Assembly (NCBI GenBank): GCA_029781035.1
Contig: JAKOXK010000005.1
Span: 1-32,789 of the forward strand
Source of the DNA: Armatimonadota bacterium
GTDB taxonomy: Bacteria; Armatimonadota; Fimbriimonadia; Fimbriimonadales; Fimbriimonadaceae
Reading direction: 5' to 3'
DNA: 32,789 nt
Part shown: in pieces, positions 8,262-10,149 of the stretch
Layout of the letters: every line of letters begins with the position of its first letter
Numbering within the stretch: the stretch's first letter is position 1
Translations under genes and position numbers: made by a program
The notes under the pieces: generated by a model
The model's database searches: none
Seen by the model: the letters and a program-made list of their open reading frames with translations, nothing else
What the model was told of the DNA's origin: nothing

Positions 8262-8299
8262 CGGGGTCCCAGAGTTGGGAACGGTCCCCATACCAAGGG

Positions 8300-8446
8300 C
8301 GTTCTAAGTAATTGATCCTCCTGAGACCAGGGACGACCGGAATCCAAAAAGAACCGGCGATCCCCTACCAGAGCCAGGCGAAGTACGAAAGAGAACAAGC
8401 GAGTATCAGCCGGACTTGTCCTCCAGGACGGTCCGGCCTCTTTTTT
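8300..8446 (+). ncRNA. Putative structured small RNA A (or long lpxB 3' UTR)
   Basis: The segment starts after an A/T-rich patch (TTCTAAGTAATTGAT, about 8302-8316) that could hold a -10 element. It contains a symmetric hairpin at 8330-8364: GGGA/TCCC and CCGG/CCGG pairs separated by a CGA/CGA internal loop, with an A-rich apical loop. It ends at the intrinsic terminator 8409-8446. The A-rich unpaired stretches around 8345 and 8390 resemble loops of regulatory RNAs. I match it to no known RNA class. The alternative is an extended lpxB 3' UTR. Boundaries are approximate. Confidence 0.35.
8409..8446 (+). terminator. Intrinsic terminator 1 downstream of lpxB
   Basis: GCCGGAC (8409-8415) pairs with GTCCGGC (8431-8437). 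Inside, GTCC pairs with GGAC around a short loop. The tail CTCTTTTTT runs to 8446. This is a textbook plus-strand Rho-independent terminator about 150 nt after the lpxB stop. Confidence 0.85.
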
Positions 8447-8449
8447 CGC

Positions 8450-8639
8450 TAATCTGGGGTTCGGCATGAGGTATCGTGGCCGCTCTTGCCCTAAAGGAAG
8501 CTCGGAATGGGCCGACCATAGGAATAGAGAGTCCGCAGGGCACTGGTTGGAACACCCATCCTAGCACCAGCGGACAACCACTAGAAACAAAGATTAGCCG
8601 CTCCGGATCTGTCCTCTCCGTCCGCGAGCGGCTTCTTTT
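8450..8639 (+). ncRNA. Putative structured small RNA B
   Basis: It follows directly after terminator 1. TAATCT (8450-8455) and TATCGT (8472-8477) are possible -10 hexamers. A composite stem lies at 8531-8575: GTCCG/CGGAC stacked on CTGGT/ACCAG with a one-sided 7-nt bulge. It ends in a second hairpin with a T-rich tail. A second terminator so soon after a strong one implies transcription restarting in between. No match to tmRNA, RNase P, SRP or 6S signatures was found by eye. Boundaries are approximate. Confidence 0.4.
8597..8639 (+). terminator. Intrinsic terminator 2
   Basis: GCCGCTC (8597-8603) pairs with GAGCGGC (8626-8632), with an inner CGGA/TCCG helix, followed by TTCTTTT. It resembles terminator 1 in layout, and both hairpins enclose GTCCTC. 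It may also serve the convergent M42 gene in reverse, although the minus-strand tail is less T-rich. Confidence 0.75.
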
Positions 8640-8727
8640 GCCCAAAATCTTAGAGAAAGTTTAAGGAAGGGAAACAGCCCTGTTGTGCAATGGGCCTACC
8701 GCCCTCAGAGAAGAAGGCGACTGACAA

Positions 8728-9788: not shown

Positions 9789-9879
9789 GCCCGAAGGAAG
9801 CCAAGATGGCTGTCAGCACGAATCATCTCTCCACAGTCCGGCGCAACGGGGTCGAGTGCTTGGCGTATTCAAGATCAGG

Positions 9880-10149
9880 ATGGAACAGAAGGTCAGGACC
9901 GAGGAATGCCGCGTGGACGGTTCCAAGCTGATGGAGGAACTGAAAAAGATCATCCATGAAGGGAACGTCCAGCGTGTCGTGATCAAGTCGAAAGCAGGGC
10001 GGACGCTACTCGACATGCCTTTAGTGGTCGGAGCGGTTGGAGTCCTCCTCTTGCCGTTCTGGGCCGGTGTTGCCGCCATCGTGGGCCTCGCGAACGAGTA
10101 CTCCCTGGTGATCGAGCGGGTCGAGACTCCAGCCAGCACCAGCCACTGA
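9880..10149 (+). CDS. DUF4342 domain protein
   Basis: An 89-residue protein from the ATG at 9880; an in-frame GTG at 9856 would add eight residues. It matches the DUF4342 pattern: an N-terminal amphipathic helix (GSKLMEELKKIIHEGNVQRV), two strands (VIKSKAGRTLLDMPL), a hydrophobic segment (VVGAVGVLLLPFWAGVAAIVGLA) and a final strand (YSLVIERVE). Some longer homologues carry an extra UBA-like helix, absent here. The function is unknown; one membrane-associated hydrophobic hairpin is likely. An AGG immediately precedes the ATG, and TATTCA lies 8 nt upstream. It is followed by rimO after 47 bp. Confidence 0.8.
   Translation: MEQKVRTEECRVDGSKLMEELKKIIHEGNVQRVVIKSKAGRTLLDMPLVVGAVGVLLLPFWAGVAAIVGLANEYSLVIERVETPASTSH

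What the first reader, a model, noticed from the sequence alone, without database searches (positions are those of the whole stretch)
8262..8727. Two tandem structured-RNA-like modules, each with its own intrinsic terminator
The largest gene-free stretch holds two plus-strand modules. Module A has a symmetric hairpin (8330-8364, with a CGA/CGA internal loop) and a strong terminator (8409-8446). Module B has a stacked stem with a one-sided 7-nt bulge (8531-8575) and a second terminator (8597-8639). Both terminators enclose GTCCTC. A second terminator right after a strong one makes sense only if transcription restarts between them, as TAATCT or TATCGT could allow. The flanking genes converge, so these are not leaders. 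This suggests one or two undescribed small RNAs.
Basis: partly seen in the sequence, partly recalled or inferred. Interest (0 to 1): 0.68.

Follow-up and report, generated by a model that had tools for sequence, protein, structure and literature searches.

The report
Two conserved small RNAs beside lpxB
The gap after lpxB in this Fimbriimonadaceae genome (phylum Armatimonadota) very likely holds two back-to-back small regulatory RNA genes absent from Rfam: one behind a stress-type promoter, the other ending in a hairpin whose 11-letter loop is kept almost unchanged across the family while its stem changes in matched pairs.

Summary
In detail: both modules and terminators are at the stated coordinates and fold better than shuffles. 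Comparison turns the guess into a strong inference. The two-module unit recurs in relatives. Module A follows GGAAC-N18-GTT (N19 once), kept in 17 of 18 loci and matching the actinobacterial SigE/SigH-type ECF consensus (PMC10012870). Module B ends in a terminator with a near-invariant (C/U)UGUCCUCUCC loop on a freely covarying stem: 51 copies, 93.9% of cells paired versus 64.8% shuffled, 11 of 11 pairs with compensatory change. B occurs in about 35 of 85 Fimbriimonadaceae genomes, with a second locus next to an endonuclease-IV-like gene, also in this genome. Weak hits inspected outside the family are plain terminators. Rfam gives no match; Hfq is encoded. Best reading: two trans-acting sRNAs that bind ribosome-binding sites through CU-rich seeds, A under ECF stress control. 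Corrections: the proposed TAATCT/TATCGT promoter is at chance level, a different element before B is conserved, and GTCCTC in A's loop is not conserved. No target was established; expression is untested.

The parts
8278..8303 (+). ECF-type promoter of sRNA A: -35 GGAAC (8278-8282), 18-nt spacer, -10 GTT (8301-8303)
   Evidence: GGAAC-N18-GTT/GTC (N19 once) in 17 of 18 homologous loci; equals SigE/SigH-type consensus GGAAC-N18-19-GTT (PMC10012870)
8311..8447 (+). sRNA A (module A), about 135 nt; 5' end inferred from promoter spacing, plus or minus 3 nt
   Evidence: Conserved in g1 and g11 genera; start not measured
8314..8322 (+). Candidate seed of A, GAUCCUCCU (complement of an AGGAGG ribosome-binding site)
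   Evidence: GAUCCUC(C/A) kept near the predicted 5' end in G000, G001, G003, G013 and G090; variant AUCCUCU in G002
8330..8364 (+). Hairpin A with symmetric CGA/CGA internal loop
   Evidence: z -2.3; same CGA/CGA arrangement with changed flanking pairs visible in G003 and G001, different internal loop in other relatives
8373..8406 (+). A-rich conserved linker GCCAGGCGAAGTACGAAAGAGAACAAGCGAGTAT
   Evidence: Most conserved stretch of A in six relatives
8409..8446 (+). Intrinsic terminator of A; loop not conserved
   Evidence: -21 kcal/mol, z -4.1; stem kept in relatives
8489..8498 (+). Conserved promoter-like element before B (CCCTAAAGGA; consensus CCCTCNAGAA)
   Evidence: Motif search in 16 loci, score 51.6 versus at most 27.4 in six shuffles; sigma factor unknown
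8527..8640 (+). sRNA B (module B), about 110-130 nt; 5' end uncertain
   Evidence: Family-wide hairpin plus conserved upstream element; start not measured
8531..8575 (+). 5' stem of B with one-sided bulge
   Evidence: z -3.4; GUCCGC/GCGGAC here is GUUCGC/GCGAAC in G003
8597..8639 (+). Terminator hairpin of B with strongly covarying stem
   Evidence: Model R1 hit 6e-14 here; 11/11 pairs with changes on both sides over 51 copies
8609..8619 (+). Near-invariant 11-nt loop CUGUCCUCUCC, candidate seed of B
   Evidence: CCUCUCC kept in all 51 confident hits, UGUCCUCUCC in nearly all

Best explanation
The gap encodes two trans-acting small RNAs. sRNA A (about 8311-8447) is started by an ECF sigma factor of the GGAAC-N18-GTT kind and stops at its own terminator. 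sRNA B (about 8527-8640) has its own start signal and ends in a terminator hairpin that displays a near-invariant CU-rich loop. Each RNA carries a CU-rich stretch (GAUCCUCCU at A's 5' end, CUGUCCUCUCC in B's loop) complementary to a purine-rich ribosome-binding site, with an A-rich linker and a U-tail that suit Hfq. Likely mechanism: the stretch pairs with the Shine-Dalgarno region of target mRNAs, helped by Hfq, and blocks translation; A is raised by an ECF-sensed (probably envelope-type) stress. Shown: sequences, conserved promoter pattern, conserved loop, stem covariation, second locus, an Hfq gene. Inferred: transcription, the ECF assignment, Hfq binding, target mode and direction of regulation.
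For: Unit conserved in order and spacing. Promoter pattern in 17/18 loci identical to a published ECF consensus; 23 Sigma70_r4_2 proteins in the genome. B hairpin in about 35 of 85 family genomes with 93.9% versus 64.8% paired cells and 11/11 compensatory pairs. B at a second locus near an endonuclease-IV-like gene in eight genomes, here divergent from its upstream neighbour. Unit also found next to an FAA hydrolase gene in G032 instead of lpxB. Conserved element before B. Hfq gene, 99 bits. No conserved reading frame. LhrC shows that a CU-rich terminator loop can bind an SD region.
Against: No expression data. No conserved target found with the exact complement of either seed. A's seed and linker are not conserved outside genera g1 and g11, although a promoter is. 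The ECF pattern is not enriched genome-wide. Sigma-70 promoters before B are no better than chance. Hfq binding is only assumed.
Confidence: 0.62

Rival explanations
1. B is a real small RNA, but its UGUCCUCUCC loop binds a protein or sponges another RNA; it does not pair with mRNAs.
For: The loop is kept almost letter for letter at two or more loci and in 16 genera while no target gene recurs; such constancy is expected of a protein site.
Against: The loop is an almost perfect complement of purine-rich ribosome-binding sites, as in proven CU-rich sRNAs; no candidate protein is known.
Confidence: 0.2
2. The elements are only the 3' end of the lpxB transcript: processing or decay hairpins and a backup terminator.
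For: The unit lies just after lpxB in most loci of the first type.
Against: Unit without lpxB in G032 and no lpxB match beside it in G002; B at the endonuclease-IV-like locus; promoter and loop conserved while the rest drifts. A backup terminator needs no fixed loop.
Confidence: 0.08
3. The B hairpins are copies of a mobile repeat (REP- or MITE-like).
For: Several copies per genome and tandem copies in L060 and L095.
Against: Stems differ freely while loops stay fixed, the reverse of recent copying; positions are syntenic across genera; no transposase or target duplication was seen in passing (not searched systematically).
Confidence: 0.03
4. A encodes a small protein from a TTG start at its 5' end.
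For: A 46-codon TTG frame is open here, and a GTG frame in G013 shares residues SQAK.EREQA.
Against: No matching frame in G001, G002, G003 or G090: stop codons or a one-base indel intervene.
Confidence: 0.03

Closest known systems
LhrC multicopy sRNAs of Listeria monocytogenes (PMC4132741)
   Same: Multicopy RNA, CU-rich motif displayed in the terminator loop, complementary to Shine-Dalgarno regions; envelope-stress theme (for A)
   Different: LhrC has UCCC motifs at three sites, is controlled by LisRK, and needs no Hfq; no sequence relation was seen (no Rfam match). B has one near-invariant loop, and its control is unknown
Sigma-E-dependent sRNAs (MicA, RybB; FoxI/FoxJ of Fusobacterium, PMC11005410)
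   Same: ECF-type promoter directly before a terminator-ended RNA with a conserved pairing-type stretch (5' end in RybB from general knowledge; cytosine stretch in FoxJ)
   Different: Different phylum, no Rfam match, promoter of SigE/SigH actinobacterial type, targets unknown
SigE/SigH (SigR-type) ECF promoters of Corynebacterium and Mycobacterium (PMC10012870, PMC4803200)
   Same: GGAAC-N18-19-GTT
   Different: Only the DNA pattern matches; the sigma factor in this genome is not identified

Membership tests
Any Rfam 15 family | Covariance model match at gathering score | tested here: not met
   Window and 20 homologous loci; only a neighbouring c-di-AMP riboswitch in L095; permissive search gave chance hits
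6S RNA | RF00013 match | tested here: not met
   No match anywhere in the genome
Trans-acting bacterial sRNA | Own transcription unit with terminator, conserved apart from neighbouring genes | tested here: met
   transcript itself not measured
Trans-acting bacterial sRNA | RNA-level selection (compensatory change) | tested here: met
   Terminator B helix; A only weakly tested, 2 of 12 pairs
Trans-acting bacterial sRNA | Conserved base-paired target | tested here: inconclusive
   No gene recurred with the exact complement
Hfq-dependent sRNA | Hfq encoded | tested here: met
   99 bits on C77
Hfq-dependent sRNA | RNA binds Hfq | not testable with these tools
   Needs co-immunoprecipitation
ECF-sigma-dependent sRNA | Promoter match conserved at fixed spacing | tested here: met
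   17 of 18 loci
ECF-sigma-dependent sRNA | Expression depends on that sigma factor | not testable with these tools
   Needs a mutant or reporter
LhrC family | Sequence or covariance homology to LhrC | not tested
   LhrC sequence was not compared directly; only the Rfam search bears on it

The most novel reading that the evidence does not exclude
B defines a family-wide, multi-locus regulatory RNA in a little-studied phylum whose only conserved sequence is an anti-SD-like terminator loop: either a broad binder of ribosome-binding sites with many targets or the docking site of an unknown RNA-binding protein, paired in one locus with an ECF-stress RNA of parallel design.
Probability: 0.3. Interest if true: 0.72.

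Novelty: new member of a known kind. Interest (0 to 1): 0.55.

Why it matters
I found no paper in the held library on small RNAs of Armatimonadota (with narrow search terms). This gives concrete, testable sRNA genes there: one with an ECF-type promoter beside a lipid A gene, and one family-wide RNA with an obvious candidate seed. If confirmed, it extends the ECF-controlled and CU-loop sRNA designs to a phylum far from the model bacteria.

Tried and rejected
(1) Rfam on the window, at permissive threshold, and on homologues: nothing relevant. (2) 6S RNA: absent. (4) Targets by exact complement of the loop or of A's seed near start codons: no gene recurred between genomes; a few single hits encode signal-peptide-like proteins, too few to weigh. 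The reversed-pattern control for these is itself purine-rich, so a poor control. (5) ECF regulon by pattern: no excess over the reversed control. (6) Small ORF: not conserved. (7) Homologues outside the family: seven weak hits read, all plain terminators without the loop, six of them outside the family. (8) Two weak hits in this genome's contig C21 are a GC-rich tandem repeat. (9) Plasmid collection: no match. (11) Searches failed on wrong frames and were repeated.

Full report
WHAT WAS CHECKED. The window is contig C63 of a 3.42 Mb, 98-contig genome. Named relatives are Fimbriimonadaceae or Armatimonadetes records: the length of G003's contig equals that of JAFDWS010000002 (SZAS-3), and pattern hits include CP075364 (Fimbriimonadaceae ACE_ARM1) and JAIUNY010000011. 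The gap 8262-8727 lies between lpxB (+) and an M42 peptidase (-). Terminator A (z -4.1), terminator B (z -4.45) and stem B (z -3.4) fold far better than shuffles; hairpin A moderately so (z -2.3).

CONSERVATION. BLAST of the gap in 60 relatives found both modules, in order and at similar spacing, in congeners G003 and G001 and in G013 of another genus; G002 also matches. For A the alignment shows a conserved 5' GAUCCUC, a re-paired hairpin and a nearly fixed 34-nt linker. For B it shows a terminator whose 11-nt loop CUGUCCUCUCC is identical although the stem is not.

MODULE B AS A FAMILY. A covariance model of the B terminator from eight sequences hits 46 of 85 family genomes at E <= 0.5 and, by my count of the table, about 35 genomes in 16 genera at E <= 1e-4. 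Many genomes hold two or more; this one has the window copy (6e-14) and one on contig C71 (1e-7). Over 51 hits (48 distinct), 93.9% of cells pair versus 64.8% when partners are shuffled, all 11 pairs show changes on both sides, and sliding the register by one base drops pairing to 44-45%. That alignment was fitted to the model, which favours the structure, and shuffling ignores relatedness; but an unfitted MAFFT alignment of eight already shows 9 of 13 pairs with compensatory change. In the phylum (291 genomes) strong hits are confined to this family; seven weak hits were read, six of them from outside the family, and are terminators without the loop.

TWO SYNTENIC HOMES. lpxB precedes the unit in most loci of the first type. 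The second home is beside a TIM-barrel AP-endonuclease gene (endonuclease IV-like by my reading) that converges on B; it is seen in eight genomes, and in this genome the upstream gene diverges (L082). In G032 the promoter-A-B unit follows an FAA hydrolase gene in place of lpxB, and no lpxB match lies beside the unit in G002. So the RNAs are units of their own, not the tail of lpxB. Downstream neighbours also differ (M42 peptidase here, a YbjQ-domain gene in the congeners), so they are not leaders.

PROMOTERS. 17 of 18 loci have GGAAC, 18 bases (19 once), then GTT or GTC, ahead of A. GGAAC-N18-19-GTT is the SigE/SigH-type promoter of Corynebacterium and the mycobacterial SigE promoter (PMC10012870; compare PMC4803200). 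This genome has 23 matches to the ECF-type Sigma70_r4_2 domain, so a suitable sigma factor is plausible but not identified. Ahead of B a motif search found a CCCTCNAGAA-type element 87 to 108 nt before the hairpin in 16 loci, score 51.6 versus at most 27.4 in six shuffles; in the window it is CCCTAAAGGA at 8489-8498. Some of those loci are close relatives, which inflates the score. Sigma-70 matches are no better than in shuffles. In G010, G088 and G023 no terminator is evident between the ECF promoter and B, so B may be reached from that promoter there; this is unresolved.

MECHANISM. Both RNAs have the parts of trans-acting sRNAs: a structured 5' region, an A-rich linker, a terminator with U-tail and a CU-rich stretch complementary to ribosome-binding sites. 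Hfq is present. LhrC of Listeria shows by experiment that a CU-rich terminator loop can bind a Shine-Dalgarno region, in a multicopy sRNA induced by envelope stress (PMC4132741). I therefore commit to SD-blocking antisense sRNAs, with A under ECF control. The step from conserved loop to mRNA pairing is inference. Exact complements near starts turned up no gene twice. In single genomes they sit on the ribosome-binding site of genes such as a signal-peptide-like protein in this genome (L235) and others in G010, G002 and G104, which is suggestive only. A protein-binding loop remains a real rival.

The GTCCTC shared by both terminators is coincidental for A. The proposed promoter hexamers are at chance. 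The rest, including two units with separate starts, is supported.

NOVELTY. No Rfam match and no paper found in the held library for small RNAs of this phylum. The RNAs are new families of a known kind; the near-invariant loop on a free stem in a multi-locus family is the most interesting part.

Noticed in passing
L060 (G097:C60) 1271, 1501, 1816; L095 (G017:C5) 1501 and 2873: B-type hairpins occur in tandem, three within 600 bases in L060; the L095 pair lies beside a c-di-AMP riboswitch (RF00379).
   Followed up: partly
L032 (G036:C12) 158-209: A B-type hairpin lies next to a gene that looks like a diadenylate cyclase (by eye), a second hint of a c-di-AMP neighbourhood.
   Followed up: no
L235 (G000:C85, about 42503): In this genome GAGAGGACA sits 4 bases before the ATG of a 397-aa signal-peptide-like protein: a candidate target of B.
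   Followed up: no
L083 (G000:C21:64107-64219): Tandem GC-rich repeat TTTTTCCGTCCGCCGCGGACA near a contig end; false positive of the model.
   Followed up: no
whole genome G000: No 6S RNA found by the Rfam model.
   Followed up: no
window 9856-10149: Small DUF4342 protein gene (Pfam PF14242) beside the M42 peptidase.
   Followed up: no
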